The notes under the pieces were generated by a model. The model was not told the origin of the DNA. It made no database searches and saw only the letters and a list, made by a program, of their open reading frames with translations. Below are positions 3,443 through 29,351 of a stretch of DNA of 64,000 nucleotides, piece by piece. Position 1 is the first letter of the stretch. Every line of letters starts with the position of its first letter. Made by a program: the position numbers and the translations under genes. The stretch covers positions 62,001 to 126,000 of the forward strand of contig JABDHJ010000003.1 in the NCBI GenBank assembly GCA_013285645.1. Direction: 5' to 3'. The DNA comes from Verrucomicrobiota bacterium (lineage in GTDB: Bacteria; Verrucomicrobiota; Verrucomicrobiia; Methylacidiphilales; UBA1321).

Positions 3443-3472
3443 CGCCTGGCCTAGGTTCGGCTTTATTTACTT

Positions 3473-4896: not shown

Positions 4897-4999
4897 GTGG
4901 AATCGAGGATGGCGGAATTCTAAAAGTGAGACTTTTGCAGAAGTCTTTTACGGGAAAGATGTCCGTTCCCTATCGGTAACGCATCGCTGATCTTTTCGA

Positions 5000-6127: not shown

Positions 6128-6257
6128 ATGCATGAGAACGGTCATTAAGCGGCACCTTGCCATCCGGCGCAAGAAAAAGTGCTGGGTGCGGCCATTCGAT
6201 TATATTCGACTTTCCCCAAAGATTGCATCCGTCGCCGGTTTGGTTGACAGTAGGAGC

Positions 6258-7366: not shown

Positions 7367-7371
7367 AAGTT

Positions 7372-7403
7372 CCGTCATCCCGAGCTTGTCGAAGGATCAG
7401 TTC
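7372..7403. repeat. Single arm of dispersed repeat REP-A
   Basis: Carries the GTCATCC-GAGCTTGTCGAAGGATCAG core with one substitution (CCCGAG instead of CCTGAG). Only one arm is present, unlike most copies in the window, which are paired in inverted orientation. It lies directly after rph. Confidence 0.8.
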
Positions 7404-7409
7404 TGCTTC

Positions 7410-7561
7410 CCTTGTTCCCAAACTCCATTTGGGAACACGCTTGCTTAGGCAACTCTATTGCTGACCTTTGTGCGGGTATTCGCACGGGCAACAAGAAAAC
7501 GACTGCAGCAATGGAGTTGCGCAGACAATCGCGTTCCCAAATGGAGTTTGGGAACGAGGAA
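7410..7561. repeat. REPIN-like pair of palindromes, RAYT family (REP-B)
   Basis: Two palindromes, TTCCCAAACT..ATTTGGGAAC at 7411-7436 and its inverted partner at 7531-7556, flank about 95 bp. Inside, GCAACTCTATTGCT and AGCAATGGAGTTGC also pair, so the whole unit could fold as one long nested hairpin. The GTTCCCAA...TTGGGAAC core matches the ends of the transposase-bearing element at 43.3-43.9 kb. This looks like a non-autonomous copy mobilised by that enzyme. Confidence 0.75.
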
Positions 7562-7562
7562 C

Positions 7563-7650
7563 AAAGAACGCAAAGAACACGAAGAACGAGGGAGGCGAGA
7601 CGGTGTTTTTCAGCCTCTTTATGATCTCTGCGTTCTTTCGCGGCTAAATC
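7563..7650. repeat. Dispersed inverted repeat of the AAAGAACGC-AAAGAACAC family (REP-C)
   Basis: The left arm is AACAAAGAACGCAAAGAACA and the right arm is CTCTGCGTTCTTTCGCGGCT, imperfectly complementary. It reaches the stop codon of the DUF2264 gene. A better conserved copy lies at 17042-17109. Confidence 0.6.
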
Positions 7651-8810
7651 CCAATCGCATGATCCGCTGGAAGATTCTCACCTGACCAGAGCCGTTTCTG
7701 CGTCCAGGGCTGGTCGGGTTCCGTCCAGAACGGATCGTTGGGCGGCAGGCCTAGATGGAGCAAGCCAACGGCGCAGAGATAGAGACTGCCGGTTGAAATA
7801 TAACCCTCGGCTTGAGCAGGCTGATGCCCCGCGACACCCAACGTCAACCAGCCTTCCGCATCGAGAGTCCCGGGCGCTTCGATCATCCGCCGAACCACCG
7901 CCGTCAACGCCGCGCGAACTCCAGCGGGAGCAAGCCCCTCCGGAAGCTGATGCTCCAGCGCCATCTGCGAAAGCGCCTGAAAAGCCCCAAAGCGGTAGCA
8001 ACTCGACCGGCCAATAATGGGAAAAGTCGCCTCGGGCGAAATCAACCGCTCCTGCACCACCGCATAACGTCGGGCTCTTTCAAGAATTAGCGAATAATGC
8101 GTTCCAAGCGGATGCTTCTTCTCCGCGCAAATGCGCAGGACATCGAGCAGCATCGGCTGAATCACGAAGCTGTTGTAGTAATCCCAATGATAACGCGGGC
8201 CATCGCCATACGCGCCGTCGCCCACGTACCATTCCAGATGTTTATCAACCGCCGTCTGAATCGGAGCCATCTCGCATTCGCCGGTAAATTCCCACAGCGC
8301 CACCTCGACCATCGCGCTGAACAACAGCCAGTTGTTCTGGCCCGGCGTAATCACGCGAGTCAATTTGAAGGCGGTAACGACACGGGCGCGAGTCTCCTTG
8401 TCCAGATTGCCCCAGAGTTGCTTCGGTGCGCGCAGAAGCCCATGGGCCAGAAAAGCAGTGTCCACCAGCGGTTGTGATCCCTGGTTGAAATTCATGTAAT
8501 CGGGCGACTGCGGATCGACCGCGTGAGCAATCCCTTTTACTGCGAGTCCAATAAAACGCTCCCGAAGTTTTCCCTCGTCTGTCGCATCCGTGCCCAGTTC
8601 CAGCCACGGCGCCATTCCGGCCAGCAGACGTCCCAGTGCCTCCAGATGCGTGTAGGCGGGACGATCGGCACTGCCCGGAAGCGACTCCACCGGCATCCGC
8701 GCCCGAAGCTGGCCTTCGCTCAGCGCAGTTAGGACGGGAGTAGCGATGCGGGTCAGTACGTCGATTGAATAGGCACGTGCCGCCGTTCCATCGGAGTTCG
8801 GTATAGTCAT
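7644..8810 (-). CDS. DUF2264 domain protein
   Basis: 388 residues from the chosen ATG 8810 (MTIPNSDGTAARAY). The DUF2264 features are the early THLEALGRLLAGMAPWLEL, the central GQNNWLLFSAMVEVALWEF and YVGDGAYGDGPRYHWDYYNSFVIQPM, and the late PAQAEGYISTGSLYLCAVGLLHLGLP. The family has an (alpha/alpha)6-barrel character and is often found in polysaccharide-degradation loci. The fully conserved acidic and aromatic clusters suggest a carbohydrate-active enzyme, but no activity is assigned here. The longer form would begin inside the adjacent REP-A repeat, so the shorter start is preferred. Confidence 0.85.
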   Translation of the reverse strand: MTIPNSDGTAARAYSIDVLTRIATPVLTALSEGQLRARMPVESLPGSADRPAYTHLEALGRLLAGMAPWLELGTDATDEGKLRERFIGLAVKGIAHAVDPQSPDYMNFNQGSQPLVDTAFLAHGLLRAPKQLWGNLDKETRARVVTAFKLTRVITPGQNNWLLFSAMVEVALWEFTGECEMAPIQTAVDKHLEWYVGDGAYGDGPRYHWDYYNSFVIQPMLLDVLRICAEKKHPLGTHYSLILERARRYAVVQERLISPEATFPIIGRSSCYRFGAFQALSQMALEHQLPEGLAPAGVRAALTAVVRRMIEAPGTLDAEGWLTLGVAGHQPAQAEGYISTGSLYLCAVGLLHLGLPPNDPFWTEPDQPWTQKRLWSGENLPADHAIGI

Positions 8811-8860
8811 GGGAATCCCTAAATACACAGGGATTTCTCTAAAAGTCTCTTTTAAAAATT

Positions 8861-8974
8861 CCGTCATCCTGAGCTTGTCGAAGGATCAGCTTCCGGTGAC
8901 TTTCTCATTAGCGAGTCCATGGGTGGTTTTGAAAACGCATGGAAGCTGATCCTTCGACAGGCTCAGGATGACGG
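8861..8974. repeat. REP-A inverted pair
   Basis: The left arm (8861-8894) and right arm (8941-8974) are inverted copies with one mismatch and could form a ~34-bp hairpin with a 46-nt loop. The core is CCTGAGCTTGTCGAAGGATC. It lies between two minus-strand genes. Confidence 0.9.
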
Positions 8975-9010
8975 ATCGTTTGGAGAAGTGGCTTTGAGGA
9001 TCCAGAGAAA

Positions 9011-9631
9011 TCACTCCAGAGGATTCTCTTTGCACCAATCGACAAATTTTTTCAAGGCGCGGCCCCGATGACTTAAATTCGTCTTCGTCTTTTCAAGCAA
9101 TTGGCCAAAAGTCCGCGTGTAGGTGCGTGGAACAAAGAGCGGATCGTAACCGAAGCCATTCGTCCCTTTTGGCTCGAGGGTAATGGCACCCTCGCACGCG
9201 CCGTCGAAGGTCTCAAGCACCTCGCCGCCTTTCGCGAGGACCAACACGCAGCGGAAGCGGGCGCCGCGCTGCTCCGGTGTTAGCGCGCCCACGCGCTTCA
9301 GTTCTTCCAACAGCTTGGCGTTGTTCCTTTCCGTGGAGGAGGGGATGCCGCCATATCGCGCGGAGAAAACACCCGGTGCGCCGTCCAGCGCATCGATTTC
9401 CAGTCCCGAATCATCGGCCAGGGCGTAATCGGAAATCAGTTGCGAGGTCGCCACGGCCTTCAGTGTTGCGTTGGCTAGAAAGGTGTCGCCTGTCTCCGCA
9501 ATTTCGTCGGAGCCGTCCATCTCATGGTAATCGGCGGAACTTTTTACCTCCCAAAACGGGGAGAGAACGGTGGTCATCTCCTGGACCTTGTGCAGATTGC
9601 GAGTGGCGATGCAGAGCGTTTTCTTATTCAT
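9011..9631 (-). CDS. rdgB: dITP/XTP pyrophosphatase (Ham1/RdgB)
   Basis: 206 residues, typical length. It begins with the nucleotide-binding motif CIATRNLHKVQEM and continues with ALADDSGLEIDALDGAPGVFSARYGG, the family signature containing catalytic Asp residues. It ends with TNGFGYDPLFVP and the LSHRGRALKKF segment. The enzyme hydrolyses non-canonical purine triphosphates to monophosphates and pyrophosphate, protecting DNA and RNA. It is divergent from leuS. Confidence 0.95.
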   Translation of the reverse strand: MNKKTLCIATRNLHKVQEMTTVLSPFWEVKSSADYHEMDGSDEIAETGDTFLANATLKAVATSQLISDYALADDSGLEIDALDGAPGVFSARYGGIPSSTERNNAKLLEELKRVGALTPEQRGARFRCVLVLAKGGEVLETFDGACEGAITLEPKGTNGFGYDPLFVPRTYTRTFGQLLEKTKTNLSHRGRALKKFVDWCKENPLE

Positions 9632-9721
9632 GACAAATGGGTATTATTCTACGTTACTGCCAACCGTAGGTCTTTTGCTTTCCATATATAGGCGGCTGTA
9701 GTTAACTGAGAGGCTCTCACC

Positions 9722-12205
9722 ATGCAAGTACGCAAACAATTTCCTTTCGCCGTCTTTGAACCCGTCTGGCAACGCTATTGGGCCGAAAAGAGCACGTTTC
9801 GCGCCGCCAATCCCGGCGAGCCCGGCAGCGAGAAACCGAAGTTCTACGCCCTCGACATGTTCCCGTATCCGTCGGGCGCGGGACTCCACGTCGGCCATCC
9901 TGAAGGCTACACGGCCACGGATATTGTTTGCCGCTATAAGCGCATGAAGGGCTTCAACGTCCTTCATCCCATGGGTTGGGACGCCTTCGGACTGCCTGCT
10001 GAACAATACGCCGTTCAGACTGGCACGCATCCGCGCGAGACGACCGCAAAGAACATCGCCAACTTCCGCCGCCAGATCGATGCGATTGGTTTTTCCTACG
10101 ACTGGTCGCGGGAAATCAACACGACCGATCCCGCCTATTATAAATGGACGCAGTGGATTTTCATCCAGCTTTATAAGAAGGGCCTCGCTTACACTTCCCA
10201 CGCACCGGTTTGGTATTGTCCGGAACTCGGAACGACGCTGGCCAATGAAGAGGTCATCCAAACCGATGAAGGCCCCCGTTCTGACCGCGGTAATTTTCCC
10301 GTTGAGCGGCGTCCTTTGCGGCAGTGGATGCTGAAAATCACCGCCTATGCGGAGCGTTTGCTGAAGGACCTCGATCAACTCGATTGGCCGGAATCGCTGA
10401 AGGAAATGCAGCGGAACTGGATTGGTCGCAGCGAAGGCGCGGAGGTGCATTTCAAATCATCGTTGGACACCATCATCACCGTCTTCACTACTCGGCCCGA
10501 TACGCTTTTTGGCGCGACCTATATGGTTCTTTCGCCCGAGCACCCACTGGTCGAGAGTCTGACCACACTTTACCAACAGGAAGCTGTCCAGAAGTACAAA
10601 GCCGAAGTCGCCAACAAGAGCGACCTCGAACGAACCGATCTCGCCAAGAGCAAGACCGGTGTCTTCACCGGCGCCTACGCGGTCAACCCGGTCAACCAGG
10701 CTGAAATTCCCATCTGGATCGCCGATTACGTCCTCATGGGCTACGGCACCGGCGCGATCATGGCCGTGCCCGCCCATGACGTGCGCGATCACGAATTCGC
10801 CCATACGTTCGATCTGCCGATCATCGAAGTGGTCCGACCGGTGGCGCCCGGAATGGTCGACGAATATAGCGAAACCACAGGAGCAGCGTTTACGGGCGCG
10901 GGCATCGCCGTAAATTCCGGGCAGCTTGATGGGCTGCCGACGGACGAGGCGAAGGCGAAGATGATTTCATGGCTGGAAGAAACGGGTCTTGGCGCTCGCC
11001 GTATCCAGTACAAATTGCGGGACTGGCTCTTCTCCCGCCAACGCTATTGGGGCGAACCCTTTCCGGTGATTTGGAATGGCGATCAGCACGAAGTTCTTTC
11101 CGAAAGCGACCTGCCGCTGACGCTGCCCGAACTTGCAGATTACAAGCCGAGCCCCGAAGGCAACGCGCCGCTCGCGAAGGCGAAGGATTGGGTCAATCTC
11201 CCTGATGGTCGCACGCGCGAAACCAATACGATGCCGCAATGGGCCGGGTCGTCTTGGTATTATCTGCGCTATTGCGATCCAAAGAATCCCGATAAACTTA
11301 TCGATCCCGCCATCGAAAAATATTGGATGGGACAGAACGGCGTCGATCTCTACATCGGCGGCGCGGAGCATGCCGTGCTGCATCTTCTCTACGCCCGCTT
11401 CTGGCACAAGGTTCTCTTTGACCTGGGCGTCGTTTCCACTGCGGAACCGTTCCATAAGCTGGTCAACCAGGGCATCATTCTCGGCGAGGACAATCGCAAA
11501 ATGTCCAAGGCTTGGGGCAATGTGGTCAATCCTGATGATGTCATCGCCGAATATGGTGGCGACTCGCTACGCCTCTTCGAGATGTTCATGGGGCCGCTCG
11601 AACAGATGAAGCCGTGGTCGACCAAGGGCGTCGAAGGCGTCTATCGCTTCCTCGGTCGCGTCTGGCGTCTCGTCATGGAAGAGGACCAGGAAGGCCTCTG
11701 GCATTTCGCGCCTGCGAAAGTCACTGATGCCGCGCCGTCGCCGGAAATACTTCGCACCACTCACGCCGCGATCAACAAAGTCACCGAAGATATCGAGTTA
11801 CTCAAGTTCAATACCGGCATCTCAGCCCTTATGGAACTGGTCAACGATCTCACCAAGGAAGCGGTCCGGCCGCGCGCTGCCATCGAAACGTTGCTTCTGC
11901 TTCTCTCGCCCTTCGCGCCCCACATGGCCGAGGAACTCTGGAAAGAATTGGACCACACCAAGACGCTCGCCTACGAGCCCTGGCCTGTTGCCGACCCGAA
12001 ATATCTCGTCAAGACCGAGGTCGAAATTCCGATGCAAATCAACGGCAAGCTGCGCGGACTTATCACCGTCCCTCCCGGCTCAACCAAGGAAGCCATCGAA
12101 GCTGCCGCTCGGGCGCTTCCCGCGTTCGCCGAATGGACCACCGACAAGACCGTCCGGAAAGTCATCGTCGTCCCGGATAAACTGATCAACTTTGTCGTGG
12201 GTTAA
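9722..12205 (+). CDS. leuS: Leucyl-tRNA synthetase
   Basis: 827 residues, full length for the bacterial enzyme. Domains in order: class-I HIGH motif as HVGH (residues 56-59, in [16 protein letters not shown]); the CP1 editing domain with [20 protein letters not shown] and [14 protein letters not shown]; the leucine-specific and catalytic return; the KMSKS loop written KMSKA (residues 593-597); the anticodon-binding helical domain; and the C-terminal domain ending [10 protein letters not shown]. It charges tRNA-Leu and hydrolyses misacylated tRNA. The Ser-to-Ala change at the last KMSKS position is a mild departure. It is a single gene with no obvious partner. Confidence 0.97.
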
Positions 12206-12286
12206 TCCTGGCATTTTTAATCTCGTTCGGGTTAATTCCCCGTCGCTTGCGGCGTTATTTTCATAATCTGAAATTGTTCCCCAATA

Positions 12287-12316
12287 CCCGCTGCTTGCGG
12301 CGGGGTTCTTTATTTC
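12287..12316 (+). terminator. Possible intrinsic terminator after leuS
   Basis: A CCGC-TGCTT-GCGG hairpin is followed by GGGTTCTTTATTT. A similar CGTCGCTTGCGGCG hairpin lies 45 nt upstream. The T-tract is interrupted, so termination is plausible rather than certain. Confidence 0.35.
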
Positions 12317-12422
12317 TGTCATCCTGATTCGTAACGATGGAATTGATTTAATAAGCCGGAGGCGTGTGACTGAAACTAGAATTCGTCCTGTCTCAATACG
12401 GCGGTCTGTGTATCCTGACCCG

Positions 12423-13175
12423 ATGTTTAGGCATTCAGCCCTTCTTCTATTGGCACTTGCGTTTGCGACATCCGGCCACGCCCAGCAGCTTAATCTCAAC
12501 TCTGTTTCCATTCCCACGAACAGTCCCGCGGCAAATGCCCCGGTGATCAATGCGTTTTCGCCCACCGCGGCTTCAAGCAAGACTTCCACGGATGTTGTCG
12601 TTCTGCTGCACCAAGCCTATGAACTTTTGCAGCAAAAACAAAACGATGCCGCGCTGGATAAGGTGAACCAGGTCATTCAGATTTCGCCCAAGAATCTGGA
12701 CGCCTTCGGAATCCGTGGAGGCATCTATGCCGCAAAGAAGCAATGGGACTTGGCCGGAAAGGACTATCTGACGGTCCTCCAGATCGACGCCACCAATACC
12801 CAGGCAAAATTCAACCTGGGCGAGATCCAATTCATGCAGAAGAAGTACGATGTGGCGCGCACCAGTTTCGACACCTTGAAGCATGATCGAGATTTGGGAG
12901 ACCTGGCCGCTTACAAGGTCTTCCTCTGTGATCTTCTTGGAGGACACGACGACATCGCGGCCACGGAACTCGCCGCATTCGATACGGTTGCCCCGGGGCC
13001 CTCCTTCTATTTTGGAAAAGCCGCCTGGTGCCTTTATCACAAACAAACGGAAGACGCCCGGAGCTGGCTCCAGTCGGCGGCTGGCATTTATCTGCCCCAG
13101 AAGTTCAAGCTTTACGCGGCCAGCCTGTTCGATCTTGGTTATTTGCCTCTTCCGGCGCCTCCTCAAAAAAGTTGA
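12423..13175 (+). CDS. Secreted TPR protein
   Basis: 250 residues from ATG 12423. An N-terminal signal peptide (FRHSALLLLALAFATSGHA, cleavage before QQ) is followed by a Ser/Thr/Asn linker. Three or four tetratricopeptide helical pairs come next (LLHQAYELLQQKQNDAALDKV, AFGIRGGIYAAKKQWDLAGK, AKFNLGEIQFMQKKYDVART). The protein is probably a periplasmic protein-protein adaptor. It is followed by another small secreted protein 30 nt downstream, likely co-transcribed. The upstream in-frame extension is rejected because it buries the signal peptide. Confidence 0.75.
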   Translation: MFRHSALLLLALAFATSGHAQQLNLNSVSIPTNSPAANAPVINAFSPTAASSKTSTDVVVLLHQAYELLQQKQNDAALDKVNQVIQISPKNLDAFGIRGGIYAAKKQWDLAGKDYLTVLQIDATNTQAKFNLGEIQFMQKKYDVARTSFDTLKHDRDLGDLAAYKVFLCDLLGGHDDIAATELAAFDTVAPGPSFYFGKAAWCLYHKQTEDARSWLQSAAGIYLPQKFKLYAASLFDLGYLPLPAPPQKS

Positions 13176-13205
13176 CGGAAGCTTACAACGGGTTAATCTA
13201 TTCCT

Positions 13206-13604
13206 ATGAAGACGTTGACCAGCATTCTCGCGGTTTTTCTCCTCTCCGCTGGCTTTGCCGCAGCTCAGGATCTTAGCGGCTTGGTTGGGACGTCTGCTCA
13301 TACGAGCGGGCAGAGAGATGTGAGCGGTTACAAGTATAACTACGCGCCGGGCTATAATCCCGTCACCGCCAAGGCCGCTCCCAATCCGAAAGTCGTTCTC
13401 AAACCGCAAGTTGGCGGTATTTTCGTTGATGGCGGCAAATATGGATGGACAATCATTTCTCCTGCTGCACCAGTCACTTGGGGCAATGGTGAGAAATATA
13501 TGACCGCCCCGGCACCTGCGCCCAGTGCAGATTTGTTGCAGGAATCCGGTCCCGCCGCCCATCGCGACTCCGGCGGCTTCAAGCTTTTCAGCCTGGAATT
13601 CTAA
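13206..13604 (+). CDS. Small secreted protein of unknown function
   Basis: 132 residues with a clear signal peptide (MKTLTSILAVFLLSAGFAAA, cleavage before QD). The mature part is rich in Gly, Pro and Tyr, with no recognised domain. It lies 30 nt behind the TPR protein and may share its transcript. I do not recognise the family. Confidence 0.6.
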   Translation: MKTLTSILAVFLLSAGFAAAQDLSGLVGTSAHTSGQRDVSGYKYNYAPGYNPVTAKAAPNPKVVLKPQVGGIFVDGGKYGWTIISPAAPVTWGNGEKYMTAPAPAPSADLLQESGPAAHRDSGGFKLFSLEF

Positions 13605-13701
13605 CCGGCTGGATTTTCGTCATCATTAGTTAAAAAATTGCTTGCAGCTGCCGTTACTTCGGGCATGCTTGCGGGCTCGTTAAATTCAAAGGAGTATTTT
13701 C

Positions 13702-14019
13702 ATGTTTGCCGTTATTCGTACAGGTGGAAAGCAGTATAAAGTCACAGAAGGGGAAACCCTCGATATCGAACTGGTCGAATTTCCCGCCGAAGGCGAGAAG
13801 AAGATCACCATTTCCGATGTTCTCATGATCGGCAACGGCGACAAGTATTCGCTCGGCAGCCCGCTCGTCAGCGGCGCCACGGTCGGCCTCGAGCTCGTCG
13901 AGGACATCAAGGCCAAGAAGGTCATCGCTTACAAATACCGCCGTCGCGAAGGTTATCATCGCACCGTCGGTCACCGGCAGAAGCTCAGCCGCGTGAAAAT
14001 CACCAAAATTTCAGTCTAA
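13702..14019 (+). CDS. rplU: 50S ribosomal protein L21
   Basis: 105 residues. It starts MFAVIRTGGKQYKVTEGETLDIE, the family N-terminus, and ends in the RNA-binding KKVIAYKYRRREGYHRTVGHRQ. A good ribosome-binding site (AAGGAG) lies 8 nt before the ATG. It begins the conserved rplU-rpmA-obgE cluster, which couples ribosome components to the assembly GTPase Obg. Confidence 0.98.
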   Translation: MFAVIRTGGKQYKVTEGETLDIELVEFPAEGEKKITISDVLMIGNGDKYSLGSPLVSGATVGLELVEDIKAKKVIAYKYRRREGYHRTVGHRQKLSRVKITKISV

Positions 14020-14037
14020 ATAGAATAGGACACCACT

Positions 14038-14292
14038 ATGGCGCATAAAAAAGGTCAAGGTTCCGTACGCAACGGGCGCGATAGCGTCAGCAAGCGACTC
14101 GGCGTGAAGAAATTCGGCAGCGAAGCGGTCATCGCCGGCAACATCATTGTTCGCCAGCGCGGGACCCGTTTTCGTCCCGGAGCCAACGTTGGCATCGGTC
14201 GCGACCACACTCTGTGGGCATTGACGGATGGCGTGGTCAAGTTCGACCGCGTCAACCGCCGCGTTCACGTTCTCGAACCGGTCGCGGCTTAA
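14038..14292 (+). CDS. rpmA: 50S ribosomal protein L27
   Basis: 84 residues: [27 protein letters not shown], close to the universal L27 start, followed by [29 protein letters not shown]. The N-terminal tail reaches the peptidyl-transferase centre. There is no Firmicutes-type N-terminal extension needing cleavage. It lies 18 nt after rplU. Confidence 0.98.
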
Positions 14293-14346
14293 AGCCCCCG
14301 CTTCTTCGCCGGTTGCGCTCTTCGCGCCATCGGCGATAATCTATCT

Positions 14347-15414
14347 ATGTTTGTCGATCGCGTCCGCATCGTCGCGCGAGCCGGTAACGGCGGCCCCGGT
14401 GCCTGCTCCTTTCTTCGCGAGAAGAACATGCCCGATGGCGGTCCCGATGGCGGTAACGGCGGACGTGGCGGCAGCGTCATCATCGTCGTCGATCCGCACG
14501 TCAACAACCTGATTAAGTACCGGTACTCACCGCACCAGTTCGCCAAGAATGGGCAGAGCGGCGGCAAGAAGCAGATGTCGGGAAGATCGGGCCTCGATTG
14601 CCTTATTTCCGTTCCGCCCGGCACCGTCGTCAGTCGGATTCCAGATGAGATCATCCAGGCGCCCATCGAGGAAGGCCAGCGTGCGCCGGACGACTTGGCT
14701 CCGGTTCCCGAAGATCCTGCCGTTCTCGAACCCGTGACCGACCTGGTCAAAGCGGGTGACAAATTTGTCCTCTGTACCGGTGGCCGGGGCGGGCGCGGCA
14801 ACATGAATTTCAAGTCTTCGACCAACCAAGCGCCGAAGCGTTATGAGAATGGCGAGGAAGGCGAACGCGGTCAGTTCCAGCTTGAGCTGAAATCGATCGC
14901 CGATGCCGGACTCGTTGGTTTTCCGAACGCCGGAAAATCGACTCTTCTCTCCCGCATTTCCGCTGCTCATCCCAAGATCGCGCCTTATCCGTTCACGACT
15001 CTGGAACCGATGATTGGTGTGGTCGAGTATCCCGATTTCGCACGCGTCACCGTGGCCGATATTCCGGGCCTGATCGAGGGTGCCCATGAAGGGGTCGGAC
15101 TCGGCTACGATTTTCTTCGGCATATCGAACGTTGCCGGACACTCCTGTTCGTCATCGACATGGCCGGAAGTGAAGGCCGCGATCCGCGCGACGATTTTGC
15201 CCAATTGCGCAAAGAAGTCAGCCTTTACCAGAAGGAACTCGGCGAGCGGCCCTACCAGATTATCGCCAACAAAATGGATCTACCCGAAGCGGCGGAGAAC
15301 CTGAAAGCATTTGAGAAGCGTGTGCGACGCAAAGCCATTCCGATCGCCGGAGATCGCGAGGAAGGTCTCGACGAGCTGAAAGCGTTCCTCAAAAAAGAGC
15401 TCACTACTTCGTAA
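14347..15414 (+). CDS. obgE: Obg family GTPase
   Basis: 355 residues. The Gly-rich Obg fold (residues 1-180, with GGPDGGNGGRGGSV) precedes a G domain with the P-loop GFPNAGKSTLL, switch-II DIPGLIEGAHEG and NKMD as the G4 base-recognition motif. The C-terminal tail after the G domain is short, so the variable Obg C-terminal domain is minimal. It acts in 50S assembly and in growth control. Compared with typical Obg, about 20 residues are inserted in the Obg fold after IPDEIIQAP. Confidence 0.96.
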   Translation: MFVDRVRIVARAGNGGPGACSFLREKNMPDGGPDGGNGGRGGSVIIVVDPHVNNLIKYRYSPHQFAKNGQSGGKKQMSGRSGLDCLISVPPGTVVSRIPDEIIQAPIEEGQRAPDDLAPVPEDPAVLEPVTDLVKAGDKFVLCTGGRGGRGNMNFKSSTNQAPKRYENGEEGERGQFQLELKSIADAGLVGFPNAGKSTLLSRISAAHPKIAPYPFTTLEPMIGVVEYPDFARVTVADIPGLIEGAHEGVGLGYDFLRHIERCRTLLFVIDMAGSEGRDPRDDFAQLRKEVSLYQKELGERPYQIIANKMDLPEAAENLKAFEKRVRRKAIPIAGDREEGLDELKAFLKKELTTS

Positions 15415-20217: not shown

Positions 20218-20291
20218 GGGCCCTTAGCTCAGCGGATTAGAGCGCCTGGCTACGGACCAGGAGGCCATAGGTTCAAATCCTATAGGGCCCA
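20218..20291 (+). tRNA. tRNA-Arg (anticodon ACG)
   Basis: 74 nt. The acceptor stem GGGCCCT pairs perfectly with AGGGCCC. The D-arm reads TAGCTCAGCGGATTAGAGC, the anticodon arm CCTGGCTACGGACCAGG has ACG at its centre, and the T-arm GGTTCAAATCC is standard. CCA is not encoded. The ACG anticodon, edited to ICG in bacteria, reads CGU, CGC and CGA. The 3' end is the site of a 29-bp duplication 4.2 kb downstream. Confidence 0.97.
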
Positions 20292-20297
20292 CTTTTA
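20269..20297. repeat. attL-like site: tRNA-Arg 3' end, proximal copy
   Basis: Contains the tRNA T-loop and acceptor sequence (core TTCAAATCCTATAGGGCCCA) and is identical to 24488-24516 over 29 bp. The first mismatches are at 20268 and 20298. Confidence 0.8.
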
Positions 20298-20535
20298 CTT
20301 TTCGGAGGCGAAATCTGTTCACCTCCATTCGGGTCCATCAGGAAAAGATCATCGTCTTACTTTTTTCGAAGATCGACTCAAAGTTAGTCTGATTCATCTT
20401 CGAATTTGCCCGTGATATTGGCCTCGAAAGGCCAGTAATACTCCAGCAAAAGTGCTTATATCTGCTGAACAGATTGTAACTAATAAGTAACGAACAAGTC
20501 GCCAAATTGCCTCAGGGGGCATCTACCAAGAGTCT

Positions 20536-23500
20536 GTGAAAAAATTGATCATTTATTCGTGCCTGGCATTTGTTGGATTTCTCGCCATCCCTAATCTCAG
20601 CCGGGGTGCCACCTTTGTCATCACCAATGGGCAAACCGTCACGACCGGCCAGACACTCAGCTCGGGCCAAAGCGGAACGATCAATGCGGGAGGCACCTTG
20701 CAGATCGGCAGCGGCAGCACGGTGGCCATCACCGTCACTGGATCTGCCACCATCACGAATAACGGCGTAATTAATCAGGCGGGAACCGGGCGCGCCATTC
20801 GGGACAACACGGGCAACCTGACCCTGATCATCACGAACACGGGAACGATCGAGTCCCATGGTAACGATACCTTTCAGATGAACGTGGCCGGCAGCTCCGT
20901 GACGTTGACCAACTCGGGCACGATCGAGTCCTTGGGAACCGGCGGTTCCAATGGCCAGGCGATCGACTGGAACGCTCTTAATTCTAATGTGGGAAGCAAT
21001 ACACTGAATAACCAAGCCGGGGGTGTTATCACCGCTGCGGACTCGGATTCGGTGCGTCCGGGCCAAAATGGAGTCATCTACAACGACGGCACCATCAAGA
21101 GTTCTACCATCGGGGATTCAGGTAATGACGGTATCGATGCGCAGTCCAACAACAATATTACGGTCGTCAATGGCGAGGATATGGCGGGCAACACGGGCGG
21201 TGCCGCTTTGATCGAAGGCGCCAGACACGGCATCACCGGCGGAAATACCGCCACGCTCGGCGGGACGGTGCAGCTGGGTGACTATACCGGCACGGGCTCT
21301 TACACCATGTCGATCACCAATACGTTGGGCGGCATCATCCAGGGTGATAACGGCAGCGGCATCAATATCGACGGCTTTGGCATCCGGGGACCAGGCAACA
21401 CATTGATCACAAACGAGCTTGTGACGGTGACCAATCACGGCTCGATCATCGGCGACGGTGTGACTGCGGACGGCGATGGCATCGACGTCGACGGTAATGT
21501 CATCGTCGATAACTTTGGCACAATTGTCTCGAAGAACGCGGTACCCGATCCCGGTTCAACGCTGGAATTCAGCGAGGGCGTCACGGTCGGTGGTGGCACG
21601 ATCACCAACGAAGCGAACGCGACGATCGAAGGTCAGGTGGCCATTGGTAATACGCAGGCGGTGGGACGCGGGATCACGCTGGCTGGCATCGATAAGGACG
21701 CGAACGACAATCAAATGCCAATTCAAAGCATCTACACCAACTCGATCGTAACTAACAGCGGTCTGATCAAAGGCGACAGCGATTCAGGCATTGCTGTTCT
21801 CGGTACAACCGGGGGCGGATATAGCGTGACGATCACGAACAATGCCACGGGCACGATCGAAGGCAACAATACGGGCATCAGCCAGGATAGCACCATTACG
21901 GGAACCGGGCCCTTTGCTGGGCAAATGTCAGGCGAAAGCCTGAACAAAGGCGCCATCGAACTGGACGACACGGGAAATACTTACGTCGTCACGGATTATG
22001 GCACGATCAAGCAGGACAACACGTCGGGCGGTTCGGCTGTCGCCATGCACAGCAGCACGTCGAACGTGTTGAACATCCTCGGCGGTTCTGCCTCCGTCAT
22101 CGGTGATGTTTCCGGCGACACGGCGGCGGACAGCACGCTGACCATCAACCCCGGGACGGGAAACAGCTTCAGCTACGGCTACGTCATCTCGAATTTTACG
22201 GTGCAGATTAATTCCGACAGCACGACCGGAACGGTGACGTTCTCCGGTGCGAACACCTACTCCGGTGGCACCACCATCACCGCTGGCACGTTGGCCCTCG
22301 CTGGTCCTAACGGTTCTCTCCTGAGCACCGGCACGGTGCACGACAATGGAACGTTCGATATCTCGGGAATCACCAATATTGGTGACTCCACGAGCATCGG
22401 CAATCTGTATGGTTCCGGCGTCGTCGCCTTGGGTGCCAACAACCTGACTCTCAACGATACCGGCTTATCATTCTTCCGTGGTACGATCCAGGATGGTGGA
22501 ATCGCCGGTGGTACCTTTGGTAGCATCACGAAGGAAGGATCCGGCGTCCTTATCCTCACGGGGGCCAGCACCTACACGGGTGGCACCGTGGTCGACGCGG
22601 GTATCATCGGTGTGGGTAATTCACACGCGCTAGGTAACGGTTCCGTCACCCTCAACGGTGGCCGACTCAATACCGAAGCTGAAACTGGCTTCCTCCCTCC
22701 GCTCACGATCAACGTGGGTAACAACCCGGGTGCGAACTACACGCAGAACGGGGGCACATTGCTCCTCGAAGTCACTGGAAACAGCACTGCCTCGACGACG
22801 CAGGCCCAGGCTGGAACCGGTGGTAACTACGACACGTTGGTCTCCTCCGGTGGCGCTGCCATCCTGGGAGGAACGGTTCAGTTGAACTTCGAGAACCCTG
22901 CGTTCGCTGTGGCCGGTCAACGTTATCAGGTGATCTCCGCCAACACTGCGGTGACCACTGATCCGATTGCGGTCACTGTGACTGGTACCACGAACAGCTT
23001 CTTGACTTCCATCACGACCTATAACGATTCGTTTGGTGGTGCGTTTGCTCAAAACAGCGTGGTAGTCACCCTGTTGCAGCCGTTCACGACATTCGGTCAA
23101 AGCCTGACTGCGAATCAGTCGAGTGTGGCCAATGGTGTTGATAACGCGGTCAAGGGCATGCTCACCGGTGGAGTGCTGATGAATCCTACAGGTGCCCAGG
23201 CAGACTTCTTCAACAACATTGTGGGAGGACTGACCACGGCCGCCAATGGTGGCAGCCTGGGTTATGCGCTCGATCAGCTTTCGCCGCAGCGCTTCCAACT
23301 CCTGCGTAACGTCGCCTACGACAACAACGCATTCGACGTCCAGACCTTGGATGACGAGTTTTCCCGCGAGCGTAACGGCCCCGGCGGATTCGATACCTCA
23401 GGCTTCGCGTTCAACGACAGCCGCCTCGGCGGACAGTTGTCCGGGGTCAAGAGTCGCTTGCTCGCCTGGTCGCCCCAGACGGAACCCGGTCTCCTGAGCG

Positions 23501-24414
23501 ATTCCAACCAGTCCGTGCTCGGTGGCGTGGCCATGGCTGACTCGAAGAACGTGACGACCCCGATGGGTGAGTACAGCAAGTGGAACGGATTCCTCGATGG
23601 CGGCGCCGACCTAGGCAGCATCGACAGCAACTCCGATATCAGCAATGCGTCTTATACCACGGCCCGGATTCGGGTTGGCGGCGACTACGCGGTGACCAGC
23701 AACCTGCGAGTTGGTATGATGTTCGGTTACAGCCACACCAACGCCGACCTTGATAACGAAGGCAGCAAGGCGAAAGTGAACAGCTACACGCCTGGTATCT
23801 TCGTCACCTACGCGGACAAGAGCGGGTTCTACGCCAACGGTATCTTCACGGGTACGGTGAATGACTACTCCACGAGCCGTAACATCATCATCCCCGGTGT
23901 CAACCGCACGGCCAGTGGCTCAACCAGCGGTTTGCAGTTTGGTGCCGATCTGGATGGTGGTTACGAGTTCCACAAAGGTGACTGGACGTTCGGCCCCTCG
24001 GCTGGCTTGACCTACGTCAATTTGGGTATCGATTCCTTCACCGAAGGTGGAGCGAACTCGGCTGACTTGGCCATTAACAACCAGTCCTCCGACTCGCTGC
24101 GCAGCAGGTTGGGAGGCTCGGTCTCCTACAAGGCCAAGATTGGCTCGGTCAATCTGACCCCGCATGTCGACGCCTACTGGCAGCACGAATTTCTCGACCA
24201 GTCGGGATCGATCAGCAGCAACTTCGTAGGCGTGCCTAATGGTAACTTCTCGGTGACCACCACGCAGGGAGACAAGAACAACGCGCTGGTCGGAGCCGGA
24301 TTGGATGCCGACCTGGACCAGCATGTGACCCTGTTCATCGACTATCAAGCGGAAGCCGGTGGTGCCAGCTACTTCGGCCAATCGATTGATGGCGGGGTGA
24401 AAATTGGGTTCTAG
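20536..24414 (+). CDS. Autotransporter (type Va secretion) with beta-helical passenger
   Basis: 1292 residues from a GTG start. A signal peptide (KKLIIYSCLAFVGFLAIPNLSRG, cleavage before ATF) leads into a long Gly/Thr/Asn-rich passenger. The passenger has repeated 'ITNxGxIxS/G' turns (for example LTNSGTIES, ITNNGVINQ, VTNSGLIKG), typical of a right-handed beta-helix. Two autotransporter-associated beta-strand (PATR) units lie near residues 575 and 668 (GVLILTGASTYTGGT). From about residue 1010 the sequence is an outer-membrane autotransporter beta-barrel ending GGVKIGF, with the required terminal Phe. It should display or release the passenger at the cell surface. It is the only gene between the tRNA-end duplications. 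Confidence 0.92.
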   Translation: MKKLIIYSCLAFVGFLAIPNLSRGATFVITNGQTVTTGQTLSSGQSGTINAGGTLQIGSGSTVAITVTGSATITNNGVINQAGTGRAIRDNTGNLTLIITNTGTIESHGNDTFQMNVAGSSVTLTNSGTIESLGTGGSNGQAIDWNALNSNVGSNTLNNQAGGVITAADSDSVRPGQNGVIYNDGTIKSSTIGDSGNDGIDAQSNNNITVVNGEDMAGNTGGAALIEGARHGITGGNTATLGGTVQLGDYTGTGSYTMSITNTLGGIIQGDNGSGINIDGFGIRGPGNTLITNELVTVTNHGSIIGDGVTADGDGIDVDGNVIVDNFGTIVSKNAVPDPGSTLEFSEGVTVGGGTITNEANATIEGQVAIGNTQAVGRGITLAGIDKDANDNQMPIQSIYTNSIVTNSGLIKGDSDSGIAVLGTTGGGYSVTITNNATGTIEGNNTGISQDSTITGTGPFAGQMSGESLNKGAIELDDTGNTYVVTDYGTIKQDNTSGGSAVAMHSSTSNVLNILGGSASVIGDVSGDTAADSTLTINPGTGNSFSYGYVISNFTVQINSDSTTGTVTFSGANTYSGGTTITAGTLALAGPNGSLLSTGTVHDNGTFDISGITNIGDSTSIGNLYGSGVVALGANNLTLNDTGLSFFRGTIQDGGIAGGTFGSITKEGSGVLILTGASTYTGGTVVDAGIIGVGNSHALGNGSVTLNGGRLNTEAETGFLPPLTINVGNNPGANYTQNGGTLLLEVTGNSTASTTQAQAGTGGNYDTLVSSGGAAILGGTVQLNFENPAFAVAGQRYQVISANTAVTTDPIAVTVTGTTNSFLTSITTYNDSFGGAFAQNSVVVTLLQPFTTFGQSLTANQSSVANGVDNAVKGMLTGGVLMNPTGAQADFFNNIVGGLTTAANGGSLGYALDQLSPQRFQLLRNVAYDNNAFDVQTLDDEFSRERNGPGGFDTSGFAFNDSRLGGQLSGVKSRLLAWSPQTEPGLLSDSNQSVLGGVAMADSKNVTTPMGEYSKWNGFLDGGADLGSIDSNSDISNASYTTARIRVGGDYAVTSNLRVGMMFGYSHTNADLDNEGSKAKVNSYTPGIFVTYADKSGFYANGIFTGTVNDYSTSRNIIIPGVNRTASGSTSGLQFGADLDGGYEFHKGDWTFGPSAGLTYVNLGIDSFTEGGANSADLAINNQSSDSLRSRLGGSVSYKAKIGSVNLTPHVDAYWQHEFLDQSGSISSNFVGVPNGNFSVTTTQGDKNNALVGAGLDADLDQHVTLFIDYQAEAGGASYFGQSIDGGVKIGF

Positions 24415-24487
24415 TACAAGGCTAATTCCTACTGGGCACTTTTACTCACTTCGTACAGAGATCGCCTCTGTACGAGGTGTGATAACC

Positions 24488-24516
24488 AGGTTCAAATCCT
24501 ATAGGGCCCACTTTTA
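24488..24516. repeat. attR-like site: distal copy of the tRNA-Arg 3' end
   Basis: 29 bp identical to 20269-20297. The sequence upstream of it does not extend into a D-arm or anticodon arm, so this is a partial tRNA copy rather than a second gene. Confidence 0.8.
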
Positions 24517-24560
24517 TAGCACTTACCGAGTGTCAAATTAGTGCCAATATTGCCGCTGAA

Positions 24561-24764
24561 ATGGCACGTACAAAGGCACAATTTTACACTCGCGTTCGCT
24601 GTCCCAAGAATCCCCCAGGTAAGATTTCTTGGCTCGTAGATCTCTCGAAAAATGCGCCGCATGAGCGGATTTTCATCCAAGCATCAGGCCGGGTCGTGAT
24701 CACCTACTCGTTTATGGGCAATGGACTGAGTATGCCCCCGCGGGTGAGAACCATTGGAGTTTAA
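24561..24764 (+). pseudogene. Probable remnant of a tyrosine recombinase N-terminus
   Basis: A 67-residue frame. Its first ~30 residues (MARTKAQFYTRVRCPKNP, then GKISWLVDL) look like the arm-binding N-terminus of tRNA-associated phage-type integrases, which often read 'G..SW.VDLG...GKR'. Similarity ends at residue ~31, and the rest shows no catalytic R-H-R-Y residues. It begins 44 nt after the attachment-site copy, where an integrase gene normally starts. I recognise the pattern only by eye, so the call is tentative; if correct, the gene has lost nearly all of its body. Confidence 0.4.
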
Positions 24765-25171
24765 AGTGAATGTCTGAGCCGAAGGAGTCGTGGTTCATGA
24801 CATCCAGAAATATAAATGTAATTTCCATTTGTAGCTATTGTTTGCCAAGTCATTGACTGCTCAAGTTTGACTTAAATTCGTTCCATAGCTTCAAAGGCTA
24901 TGTTCGTTCAAATCCAGATGAAAAGGAGATTTACCTCTAATCTTCTCTTTCCAGGCCCGTTTGCAATGGAATGATCGCTAGGCCTGTTGACACATGCATA
25001 GAGTTGTCATATTTTGCATTATATTGTTGACTCAAATGGTTAGATTAGCGTAATAGATGTTAAGTGTAGCATGAATTGCAGCTGTCAAGTAATGGATAGC
25101 CTCCCTCCACGATCCTCGAGTCTTGAACCAAGCAACAAGAAAATCAACCTCACCCAGACAGGAGCAAAAAA
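24765..25171. other. AT-rich non-coding stretch before the PEP-CTERM gene
   Basis: About 400 bp without a convincing gene, richer in A and T than its surroundings, with TTGACA- and TTGACT-type boxes near 24.99-25.06 kb. No further recombinase homology was recognised. It may be decayed remains of the integrated element or a long leader region. Confidence 0.5.
24987..25015 (+). promoter_or_regulatory. Likely sigma-70 promoter upstream of the PEP-CTERM gene
   Basis: A perfect TTGACA box is separated by 17 nt from TATTTT. A second weaker pair (TTGACT-18-TAATAG) lies at 25027-25056. Either would give a leader of roughly 110-150 nt before the ATG at 25172. Confidence 0.5.
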
Positions 25172-25924
25172 ATGAAAAAACAGACTTACCTCAGCATGGC
25201 CATGATGGCCCTGACGGCGATCTTGATCAGTGCCACTCCTGCGCATGCGCAAATCTTGTGGGGTTCTGCAATAAATGTTGTCGGGGATAGTGATGTCTTG
25301 GCGAATGGAACCTATTTCGATGCGGCGCTGTTCGCTAACAATTTTACTTTGGGAGCAGGCGGATCGAACAGCCCCGGTGTAAACAACTTTCTGACGGTCA
25401 ATGGCGTTTCGTTTAATACGGTTGGAGGCCAAAACGTAGGCTCCGATCTGAGTGGAGACGTCACGCTAAATTCCAGCCGCAACCCTTTTACTGGAGCCAA
25501 TTCCCTCAGCGGCGGTACGTCCTACAACACCCTGATTGTCAATGGGGAGTATTCTCAGAACCTTGCCCAAACCGTGACTCTGAGTAATTTAACGGTCGGA
25601 GACACCTATCAAGTTGAAGTATGGAGTGCCGCGATCGGACAACCGGCTTTTGTCACCGATTTGAGTGGCACAAATACAGTCAGTCTGAGCGCAACCAAGG
25701 GACAGTATGCGGTGGGTACGTTCGTTGCCGGAGCCACCGGCACGCTGACGTTCAATGCGTCGAACGATTCGACCTCTGTTAATGGCGTTGACATGCTTAA
25801 CGCCATTTCGATTCGCGATATCACCTCTGCTGTGCCCGAACCTTCTACTTACGCACTGTTATTCGCCGGCCTTCTGGTCTTCGGGGTCATTTCATCTCGT
25901 CGCCGAAAACACCAAGCGCTCTAA
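25172..25924 (+). CDS. PEP-CTERM sorted secreted protein
   Basis: 250 residues. The signal peptide (KQTYLSMAMMALTAILISATPAHA, cleavage before QI) precedes a beta-sandwich rich in Asn, Gly, Thr and Ser. The C-terminus from residue 221 is a textbook PEP-CTERM tail: VPEPSTYALLF, a hydrophobic helix, then SSRRRK. Such proteins are processed by exosortase and usually linked to exopolysaccharide production. No exosortase gene is in the window. A strong ribosome-binding site (ACAGGAG) precedes the ATG. The mature domain is otherwise unrecognised. Confidence 0.9.
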   Translation: MKKQTYLSMAMMALTAILISATPAHAQILWGSAINVVGDSDVLANGTYFDAALFANNFTLGAGGSNSPGVNNFLTVNGVSFNTVGGQNVGSDLSGDVTLNSSRNPFTGANSLSGGTSYNTLIVNGEYSQNLAQTVTLSNLTVGDTYQVEVWSAAIGQPAFVTDLSGTNTVSLSATKGQYAVGTFVAGATGTLTFNASNDSTSVNGVDMLNAISIRDITSAVPEPSTYALLFAGLLVFGVISSRRRKHQAL

Positions 25925-26343: not shown

Positions 26344-26799
26344 TTATCGCACGATGTTGGACGCCGGGGCATTCGTTCCGCCCGTATTGACGGAGGGAAT
26401 GCCGACATTATTAATTGTCGGCACCACCGGAGCCCCCGGACTAGTCATCCCCGCATTCGGATTAATGGAGGGAACAATGGAACTTGCGGTTGGAGTGGTC
26501 GTACTGGGCTGTGGAATACTGGTATTGGCCGTAGGGATGCTCGTACTCGCCTGGGGCATACTGGTGTTCGCTCGGGGCATGCTGGTATTTGCTTGGGGTA
26601 TGCTGGTATTCGCCCGGGGAATACTGGTGTTTGCTGTCGGCATGCTGATAACTGTCTTGGGAGTGCTTGTATTGGCTTTCGGGGTGCTTGTCGTGGCCGT
26701 AGGGGCTGCAGTTGTACCCGCTGGCGCAGCTGGTGCGTTAAGCGAGAGAAGGCTGGCCATCAGGGCGATGGATAGAGCAAAGGCTTGTGTTGTTTTCAT
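26344..26799 (-). CDS. Secreted low-complexity protein with heptad NTSxPxA repeats
   Basis: 151 residues from ATG 26799. A signal peptide (KTTQAFALSIALMASLLSLNAPAAPA) is followed by about ten tandem 7-residue units (residues 36-105) of the form NTS[IMT]P[QRTK]A, encoded by ~21-bp repeats. A Pro/Asn/Gly-rich tail ends ASNIVR. Pro at one fixed position of every unit and a Thr-Ser pair two residues before it suggest an extended, possibly O-glycosylated rod. The antisense frame is also open, but only as a by-product of the repeats. No known family is recognised. Confidence 0.65.
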   Translation of the reverse strand: MKTTQAFALSIALMASLLSLNAPAAPAGTTAAPTATTSTPKANTSTPKTVISMPTANTSIPRANTSIPQANTSMPRANTSMPQASTSIPTANTSIPQPSTTTPTASSIVPSINPNAGMTSPGAPVVPTINNVGIPSVNTGGTNAPASNIVR

Positions 26800-26996
26800 G
26801 GTGGAGTCTCCAAATATACATTGCATGCGATATGCCAGCAAAGGCCTTTGCCTAACTATCATGTAATCAGTCGCTTGTGATTTAAGGTTGCTCCGGTCGA
26901 TTCGCGTATTGCGCTCAATTCAATGATCGACCATGCGACATGCAAAAGATCGGCGACGGTAGAATCCCTGCTCGGATTGCTTAATCCGCGAGGACT

Positions 26997-27977
26997 TTAA
27001 CCGATGTGGGCCGCATACCAGGCGGCACCCTGCAGAGCGGTCTTCTCGTTGAGGATCACGTAGACCGGGGTCGATTCCAGCAGCGGTTGGAGGCGGCCCT
27101 TGTGAAAGAAGGATTCGAGAAAAAGAGGGCTCTGCATTTTTTCCAACATTTTCGGGGCGATTCCGCCGCCGATGTAGACGCCGCCCAAGGCGAGCATTTT
27201 CAGCGCGAGGTTGCCCGCCTCCGAGCCGTAAATATGGACAAAGGCATCAAGTGCCTCGACGCAGACGGGATCCGTCTTTGCCAAGCCAACCTGCGTTGTG
27301 ATGGCGGCGAGATCGCCCGTGCGAATTTGTTCGGTGAGCCATTCGGGCTCGGGTTGGCCGGATCGCTGGCGGAAGAAGCTGTAAAGATTTTTCATCCCCA
27401 TGCCAGAGAGGACCCGTTCCCAACTCACATGGCCATGTTCCTTGCGCAAAAAGACAAGAAGTTCGTCTCCTATGGCGCTATTGGGAGCGAAGCTGGCGTG
27501 GCCGCCTTCGCTGGCAAAGGGACGATGGGTGACTCCGTCCCAGAACAAACCGGCTTCGCCGAGGCCCGTGCCTGCGGAAATGAGCGCCCGGTTGCCGACT
27601 TGCCGCTGATTGGCTTTCGGATTGAGGGACAACAGCTCCTTGGGCTTGAGGGTCTTGATTCCATAGGCGTTGGCTTCAAGATCGTTGAGAAGACTGACGC
27701 GCTGCAGTTTGAGCTCAGCCTGAATTTCCGCGGCATTGATAACCCAGGGAAGATTGGTCACCTGCACGACGCCGTCCTTCACGGGACCCGCGACGCCGAA
27801 GCAGGCATACCGGACTTCGCTTGGACCGTCGCCAAGAAAGAGGCGGACGATTTCCACCAGCGTCTTGTGATCCTTGCTGGGGAAGGCGGCGCTTTTCTGC
27901 ACCGCAAGTTCATCGTCCTGGTATGCGTAAACGGCCAGGTTGGTTTTTGTGCCGCCGATATCGCCTGCGAGGAACAT
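26997..27977 (-). CDS. glk: Glucokinase (ROK-independent Glk type)
   Basis: 326 residues. It begins with the ATP-phosphate motif FLAGDIGGTKTNLAVY, contains FGVAGPVKDGVVQVTNLPWVI, the catalytic LLNDLEANAYGI and GTGLGEAGL, and the glucose-binding EGGHASFAP. These match the Glk family (hexokinase fold) rather than ROK kinases, which have a zinc motif that is absent here. It phosphorylates glucose in the cytosol to feed glycolysis. The gene stands alone, bounded by a REP-A element. Confidence 0.93.
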   Translation of the reverse strand: MFLAGDIGGTKTNLAVYAYQDDELAVQKSAAFPSKDHKTLVEIVRLFLGDGPSEVRYACFGVAGPVKDGVVQVTNLPWVINAAEIQAELKLQRVSLLNDLEANAYGIKTLKPKELLSLNPKANQRQVGNRALISAGTGLGEAGLFWDGVTHRPFASEGGHASFAPNSAIGDELLVFLRKEHGHVSWERVLSGMGMKNLYSFFRQRSGQPEPEWLTEQIRTGDLAAITTQVGLAKTDPVCVEALDAFVHIYGSEAGNLALKMLALGGVYIGGGIAPKMLEKMQSPLFLESFFHKGRLQPLLESTPVYVILNEKTALQGAAWYAAHIG

Positions 27978-28047: not shown

Positions 28048-28197
28048 CCGTCATCCTGAGCTTGTCGAAGGATCAGCCTCCGAAAGATGTTCGTGATTAG
28101 CAGTTGATTCGATAATGGCAAAATGAAGTTATTATCCAACTAGCAAAAATCACGAAGCTCACCGGGAGCTGATCTTTCGACAAGCTCAGGATGACGG
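28048..28197. repeat. REP-A inverted pair
   Basis: The left arm (28048-28083) and right arm (28165-28197) carry the CTGAGCTTGTCGAAGGATC core in opposite orientation, 80 bp apart. They lie between two minus-strand genes, glk and the phosphoesterase. Confidence 0.9.
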
Positions 28198-28895: not shown

Positions 28896-29351
28896 ATGAG
28901 CGCCCGCTATCTGGTCGTCGACGGGCATAGCGTCATCTTTGCCTGGCCTGATTTACGGAAGCAGCATGATCGTAACCGGGCGGCCGCGCGCAAGGCATTG
29001 GCCGAGCGCCTGCAGCACCTGCACGATACCACTCCTTGGCGGGTCACCCTGATTCTTGATGGCAAGCTGGGAACGGCCATTGCCTCTGGTACACGCAAAC
29101 CAACAGATATGGTCATCAGTTATGCCACCGCAGATCAAACTGCCGATAGTATCATTGAGCGATTGGTGGCGGCATCGGGTGTGGCACCGGAGATTCTGGT
29201 GATCACCGCCGATGAAGCAGAACGACGCGTGGTCGAGTCGCTGGGCGCTGGGGTGGCATCACCCTCGTGGCTGCGGGAAGAACTGGAGCGCGAGGGAGCT
29301 TCTTTTGCAGGCGATCTTGAGCGGGTTCACCGTTCTGCACGGTGGAAATAA
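28896..29351 (+). CDS. NYN-domain (YacP/Rae1-like) RNase
   Basis: 151 residues. It starts YLVVDGHSVIFAWPDL (PIN-like first acidic strand) and continues with TLILDG and the acidic cluster YATADQTADSIIERLV, then ILVITADEAERRVVESLGA. These are the Asp-rich hallmarks of NYN endoribonucleases. In Bacillus the YacP homologue Rae1 cuts mRNA on translating ribosomes, which would fit its position next to a small, possibly ribosome-associated basic protein. Confidence 0.85.
   Translation: MSARYLVVDGHSVIFAWPDLRKQHDRNRAAARKALAERLQHLHDTTPWRVTLILDGKLGTAIASGTRKPTDMVISYATADQTADSIIERLVAASGVAPEILVITADEAERRVVESLGAGVASPSWLREELEREGASFAGDLERVHRSARWK

What the first reader, a model, noticed from the sequence alone, without database searches (positions are those of the whole stretch)
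20218..24764. A 4.2-kb tRNA-Arg islet carrying a single autotransporter, with an integrase remnant just outside
Seen: 29 bp of the tRNA-Arg 3' end repeat exactly at 24488-24516; between them lies only the 3.9-kb autotransporter gene; 44 bp beyond the distal copy starts a frame resembling the N-terminus of a tyrosine integrase, which then breaks down. Known: tRNA 3' ends are the classic integration sites and leave such repeats. Inference: a former integrative element from which almost everything except a surface protein has been lost, or a small satellite moved by an integrase supplied in trans.
Basis: partly seen in the sequence, partly recalled or inferred. Interest (0 to 1): 0.68.

Follow-up and report, generated by a model that had tools for sequence, protein, structure and literature searches.

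The report
Decayed tRNA-Arg islet carrying one autotransporter
In an uncultured Verrucomicrobiota-type bacterium, a 4.2-kb piece of DNA holding one surface-protein (autotransporter) gene sits between a tRNA-Arg gene and an exact 29-base copy of that tRNA's end, which is the footprint of an integrating element that has lost its own integrase; this is a small example of a well-known kind of genomic islet.

Summary
The core observation holds. A tRNA-Arg(ACG) gene (20218-20292) has its 3' end repeated exactly over 29 nt at 24488-24516, and one intact 1292-aa autotransporter (20536-24414) lies between. Of 26 tRNA-Arg(ACG) loci compared (0.9-20 kb downstream in relatives), only this one and one congener (G005) carry a second copy of 13 nt or more. 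In G005 the same tRNA end bounds a 9,955-bp element with a tyrosine integrase and an HK97-type capsid gene. So this tRNA end is used as an attachment site in the genus, and an att-flanked, integrase-less islet (CIME-like) is the best reading here. The second claim fails: the 24561 frame is not demonstrably an integrase remnant (no family hit, no relatives above chance in 384 genomes, integrase scores within the range of shuffles; a frame that long is expected by chance in about 23% of shuffled copies). The autotransporter is compositionally native and belongs to a family with several chromosomal copies, none examined lying beside a tRNA-Arg. Whether the islet is a deletion remnant or was moved in trans cannot be decided, and no congener shares the downstream flank, so a true empty site could not be reconstructed. 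Ordinary kind, modest interest.

The parts
20218..20292 (+). tRNA-Arg(ACG) gene, the integration target; intact
   Evidence: ARAGORN
20269..20297 (+). tRNA-proximal att-like copy (29 nt: last 24 nt of the tRNA plus TTTTA)
   Evidence: only two copies in the window and in the assembly
20298..20535 (+). AT-rich (43% GC) 5' flank of the autotransporter; no match in any fetched relative
20536..24414 (+). autotransporter, 1292 aa, GTG start: N-terminal hydrophobic stretch, passenger with PATR repeats, C-terminal beta-barrel (residues 1022-1271)
   Evidence: PF03797 3.6e-61; PF12951 5.8e-13; TIGR01414
24423..24446 (+). possible third, degenerate copy of the tRNA-end sequence (AATTCCTACTGGG--CACTTTTACT)
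   Evidence: alignment score 24, 0.0008 of shuffles of this 72-nt stretch reach it, but chosen after the fact; scores of 22-23 occur elsewhere in kilobase stretches; weak
24447..24479 (+). strong hairpin (14-bp arms) after the autotransporter, no U-run; possible terminator or RNA-processing signal
   Evidence: I7; MFE -25.3 kcal/mol, z -4.1
24488..24516 (+). distal att-like copy, 29/29 identical to 20269-20297
24561..24764 (+). 67-aa ATG frame; identity unresolved, NOT demonstrably an integrase

Best explanation
A tRNA-anchored, att-flanked islet. A tyrosine-recombinase-type integrative element inserted at the 3' end of tRNA-Arg(ACG) and left the displaced 29-nt tRNA end at its far side. The element's recombination and transfer genes are gone, leaving the autotransporter between two intact att-like sites (CIME-like). 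Shown: the tRNA, the exact repeat, the single gene, the absence of a recognisable integrase in the islet or within about 20 kb beyond it, and use of the same tRNA end by an integrase-bearing element in a congener. Inferred: that the 4.2-kb segment itself entered by site-specific recombination and then lost its integrase. The autotransporter would be exported by Sec, insert its C-terminal barrel in the outer membrane and display the beta-rich passenger on the surface (adhesin-like role, inferred from family only).
For: Exact 29-nt repeat of the tRNA 3' end, unique in the assembly. 24 of 26 tRNA-Arg(ACG) loci have no second copy of 13 nt or more. In congener G005 a 46-nt repeat of the same tRNA end bounds a 9,955-bp element, 52.6% GC in 58-59% flanks, with an integrase (phrog_1, 1.9e-33) next to the distal copy and a major capsid protein (phrog_617, 1.9e-37; TIGR01554, 8.3e-20). 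Upstream gene order at the tRNA is conserved in four congeners while every downstream side differs. The unconstrained distal copy has no mutation although congeners differ by about 20-32% in nearby DNA, which fits insertion after the species diverged. No integrase within about 24 kb downstream of the tRNA.
Against: No integrase, excisionase or flank homology with the G005 element. The autotransporter is compositionally native and its relatives sit at ordinary chromosomal loci. The downstream flank is not beside tRNA-Arg in any congener, so there is no true empty-site comparison. The genome is a 66% complete draft.
Confidence: 0.6

Rival explanations
1. Small satellite or cassette mobilised in trans: the autotransporter segment is a minimal att-flanked unit that excises and integrates using the integrase of another element with the same tRNA-Arg specificity.
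For: Two identical att-like sites remain; a congener carries an integrase-encoding element at this tRNA; the assembly encodes 13 matches to PF00589.
Against: No second genomic copy of the islet and no third exact copy of the site in the assembly; no relative of the autotransporter in viral contigs; no other case of an autotransporter at this tRNA.
Confidence: 0.12
2. Tandem accretion: an older element already sat at the tRNA (its left end now at 24488, followed by the decayed 24517-24990 region), and the autotransporter islet inserted later between tRNA and that element.
For: AT-rich stretch of 43.7% GC and without homologues directly beyond the distal copy; orthology to a congener's locus begins only at about 24995; possible third degenerate copy at 24423-24446; accretion of CIMEs at one att site is a known route (PMC5704250).
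Against: The frame at 24561 is not demonstrably an integrase; no further att copy downstream.
Confidence: 0.15
3. The distal 29-mer is the scar of an unrelated old element or rearrangement at this synteny breakpoint, and the autotransporter reached the spot by ordinary duplication or recombination.
For: Native codon usage and multi-copy family; all congeners differ downstream of this tRNA.
Against: The distal copy is exact and starts 73 nt after the autotransporter stop, and the islet is just the gene plus short flanks.
Confidence: 0.1
4. Assembly artefact: a misjoin at the 29-nt repeat in a short-read metagenome bin.
For: The bin is 66% complete in 100 contigs; the repeat is short and exact.
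Against: 29 nt is shorter than the k-mers usually used for final contigs (own knowledge); composition is continuous; the window is inside a 155-kb contig.
Confidence: 0.03

Closest known systems
CIME (cis-mobilizable element; decayed ICE/IME with attL and attR but no recombination or transfer genes; PMC5704250)
   Same: Flanked by direct repeats of a chromosomal target gene's end, no integrase, cargo only
   Different: One gene in 4.2 kb; mobilisation in cis untested; parent element unknown, so descent from an ICE or IME is not shown
tRNA-associated genomic islands with autotransporter cargo (e.g. antigen 43 and EspC near E. coli pheV, PMC6174562)
   Same: 3' end of a tRNA gene as target, 22-24-nt repeat at the far end there against 29 nt here, surface autotransporter among cargo
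   Different: Those islands carry mobile-element genes and many CDS; here a single gene, in an uncultured bacterium
The 9,955-bp integrase and capsid-gene element at the same tRNA-Arg(ACG) in congener G005 (L033)
   Same: Same target tRNA end, direct repeat of that end at the far side
   Different: 46-nt repeat, own tyrosine integrase, capsid gene; no sequence shared with the islet outside the att
Classical autotransporters (type Va secretion; PF03797, TIGR01414; solved relatives 9oqa and 3kvn EstA)
   Same: C-terminal beta-barrel, PATR repeats in the passenger
   Different: Passenger function unknown; no catalytic domain found

Membership tests
Integrative element / islet at a tRNA 3' end | direct repeat of the tRNA 3' end bounding the insert | tested here: met
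   29/29 nt at 20269-20297 and 24488-24516
Integrative element / islet at a tRNA 3' end | empty (single-copy) site in relatives | tested here: inconclusive
   24 of 26 tRNA-Arg(ACG) loci are single-copy, but no relative shares the downstream flank
Integrative element / islet at a tRNA 3' end | foreign composition of the insert (common, not obligatory) | tested here: not met
   autotransporter codon-usage rank 30 of 67, islet GC 0.566 against window 0.553. Often absent in old or local transfers, so not strictly required
CIME | no integrase or transfer genes between attL and attR | tested here: met
   only the autotransporter lies between; no integrase in 24 kb downstream of the tRNA
CIME | derived from an ICE/IME by deletion and mobilisable by a cognate integrase | not testable with these tools
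   needs a parent element and an excision assay
Tyrosine integrase (24561 frame) | sequence similarity to integrase N-terminal domain above chance | tested here: not met
Tyrosine integrase (24561 frame) | catalytic domain downstream, even if frameshifted | tested here: not met
   frame ends after 67 aa; six frames of 24517-25200 show no continuation and no integrase profile hit in ORFs of 40 aa or more over 24 kb
Type Va autotransporter | C-terminal autotransporter beta-barrel | tested here: met
   PF03797 3.6e-61, residues 1022-1271; TIGR01414
Type Va autotransporter | N-terminal signal for export | tested here: inconclusive
   KKLIIYSCLAFVGFLAIPNLSRGA is signal-like by eye; no predictor was available

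The most novel reading that the evidence does not exclude
A single autotransporter gene as a minimal, integrase-less cassette that moves in and out of a tRNA-Arg site in trans, swapping surface proteins between soil bacteria.
Probability: 0.08. Interest if true: 0.6.

Novelty: new member of a known kind. Interest (0 to 1): 0.27.

Why it matters
If the att-flanked islet is real and recent, it shows that tRNA-site integration delivers and strands surface proteins in uncultured Methylacidiphilales-like bacteria, and that tRNA-Arg(ACG) is an integration site in this genus (a capsid-gene-bearing element uses the same site in a sister species). It does not change how such islets are thought to arise.

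Tried and rejected
Integrase reading of the 24561 frame: rejected for lack of any score above chance. Alternative reading of its C-terminal half as a fragment of a SASA-type acetylesterase: the motif VxIxYxxxGxGLxxPP matched congener and own-genome paralogues pairwise, but a profile of 20 such proteins ranked the frame only 93rd among 3000 shuffles, so also not accepted. AlphaFold on the 67-aa frame gave low confidence (mean pLDDT 46), uninformative. Kinship of the islet with the G005 element: no shared sequence beyond the att. Phage origin of the autotransporter: no viral-contig relatives. The only viral contig with the att core (L196) is a phage carrying its own tRNA genes, not an integration junction. 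Autotransporters as habitual tRNA-islet cargo in this clade: the paralogue loci examined in the own genome and congeners have no tRNA, except a tRNA-Val about 10 kb away in L120, and those checked are not bracketed by comparable repeats. Empty-site reconstruction: the downstream genes (ROK 26997-27977, NYN-like 28896-29351) lie on other contigs than the tRNA in the congeners.

Full report
Observation. The window lies in a 155-kb contig of a 3.18-Mb, 66% complete draft genome. Three congener contigs identified by exact length are titled Verrucomicrobia bacterium or Candidatus Methylacidiphilales bacterium (G006 = JABDGH010000013, G005 = JAJSLK010000015, G003 = JAMFSY010000003). ARAGORN finds one tRNA, tRNA-Arg(acg), at 20218-20292. 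Its last 24 nt plus TTTTA recur exactly at 24488-24516. No other copy exists in the window with up to 3 mismatches in the 22-nt core, and none elsewhere in the assembly. Between the copies the only substantial ORF is 20536-24414, an autotransporter (PF03797 3.6e-61 at residues 1022-1271; PATR repeats). The stop codon is 73 nt before the distal copy.

The integrase claim. The ATG frame 24561-24764 (67 aa) was tested in several independent ways. No Pfam, PHROG or NCBIfam family gives a credible match. In 384 class-level genomes its first 42 residues had matches at E 0.05 or better in 16 genomes outside the own one, about the 19 expected by chance. Against 34 integrases from related genomes its best Smith-Waterman score is 35 (shuffles: median 31, 95th percentile 39), although true integrase N-termini often score far higher against each other. 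Against a profile of those integrases it ranks 176th among 3000 shuffles. An ATG frame of 67 codons or more arises in 23% of shuffles of the 655-nt region. The second half of the frame resembles a C-terminal motif of SASA-type esterases, equally unproven by profile.

Comparison of the site. tRNA-Arg(ACG) loci were taken from congeners, family members and other families of the order. Of 26 loci scanned for a second copy of the tRNA end (13 nt or more, 0.9-20 kb downstream in relatives), only the window and G005 have one. In G005 the repeat is 46 nt, start-to-start 9,955 bp, and the element is 52.6% GC in 58-59% flanks. It encodes a tyrosine integrase next to the distal copy and reading towards the tRNA (phrog_1, 1.9e-33), a HK97-type major capsid protein (phrog_617, 1.9e-37; TIGR01554, 8.3e-20) and a putative excisionase-like protein (phrog_66, 4e-4). 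So this tRNA end is an attachment site in the genus. Upstream DNA (window about 17.9-19.3 kb) stays beside the tRNA in G001, G003, G004 and G006, but the downstream side differs in every congener. The window's downstream ROK gene is on other contigs than the tRNA in the congeners. The tRNA is therefore a synteny breakpoint, and a true empty site cannot be built from these genomes.

The cargo. The autotransporter has ordinary codon usage (rank 30 of 67 genes) and GC. Its barrel half is 66% identical to a paralogue in the same genome and 53-57% to others in G000, G004 and G012. Its passenger half is best matched by a chromosomal gene of G003 (54% over 1-696). None of the paralogue loci examined in this genome, nor the G003, G004 and G012 homologues, has a tRNA within the stretch fetched, and the loci checked are not bracketed by comparable repeats. 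The gene is thus a clade-native, mosaic surface protein that happens to sit at a tRNA site here; nothing points to a phage gene.

Mechanism. Best reading: an element integrated at the tRNA 3' end, the displaced end became the distal repeat, and only the autotransporter remains. This fits the definition of a CIME (PMC5704250), apart from the untested requirement that it derive from a conjugative or mobilizable element. A possible third, degenerate copy at 24423-24446 and the homologue-free AT-rich stretch 24517-24990 leave room for tandem accretion. Homology to a G003 locus starts only at about 24995, in front of the PEP-CTERM gene 25172-25924. Movement in trans is possible but nothing shows it.

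Novelty. tRNA islands with autotransporter cargo are known (for example around pheV in E. coli, PMC6174562), and att-flanked integrase-less remnants are known. This is a small new member from a poorly studied lineage. The more unusual observation made on the way is the capsid-bearing small element at the same tRNA in G005.

Noticed in passing
L033 (G005:C56), 4359-14359: 9,955-bp element at tRNA-Arg(ACG) with a tyrosine integrase, HK97-type major capsid protein and excisionase-like gene, and no other capsid or tail gene recognised among the products scanned; it may be a capsid-carrying phage satellite or a decayed prophage. A transposase-like gene and PEP-CTERM-like fragments lie near the tRNA.
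   Followed up: partly
L042 (G003:C21) 1222-1260: A solitary 3' fragment of another tRNA (GGATCAGGAGGTCGTAGGTTCAAATCCTATCACTCCGA), no whole tRNA there: probable att remnant of another integrated element.
   Followed up: no
L212 (G024:C1) 2638-14127: tRNA-Arg(ACG) and tRNA-Gly(TCC), close neighbours in many other genomes of the order, are separated by 11.3 kb here without a repeat of 13 nt or more; in the window's own family the tRNA-Gly is not beside tRNA-Arg.
   Followed up: partly
window 28049-28075 and 28170-28196: Inverted pair of a dispersed repeat (GTCATCCTGAGCTTGTCGAAGGATCA / TGATCTTTCGACAAGCTCAGGATGAC) that also occurs at high identity in relatives (L034, L039).
   Followed up: no
window 26344-26862 (-): 172-aa secreted-looking protein built of 7-residue NTS(M/I)PxA repeats (21-nt units at 26471-26704).
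   Followed up: no
window 24447-24479: Strong 14-bp-arm hairpin between the autotransporter stop and the distal repeat without a U-run; not found in the fetched loci of autotransporter paralogues.
   Followed up: partly
G000:C1:138000-152000 (L112): 2327-aa autotransporter paralogue with the closest barrel (66% identity) to the islet gene; the passenger regions differ, suggesting passenger swapping among autotransporters.
   Followed up: partly
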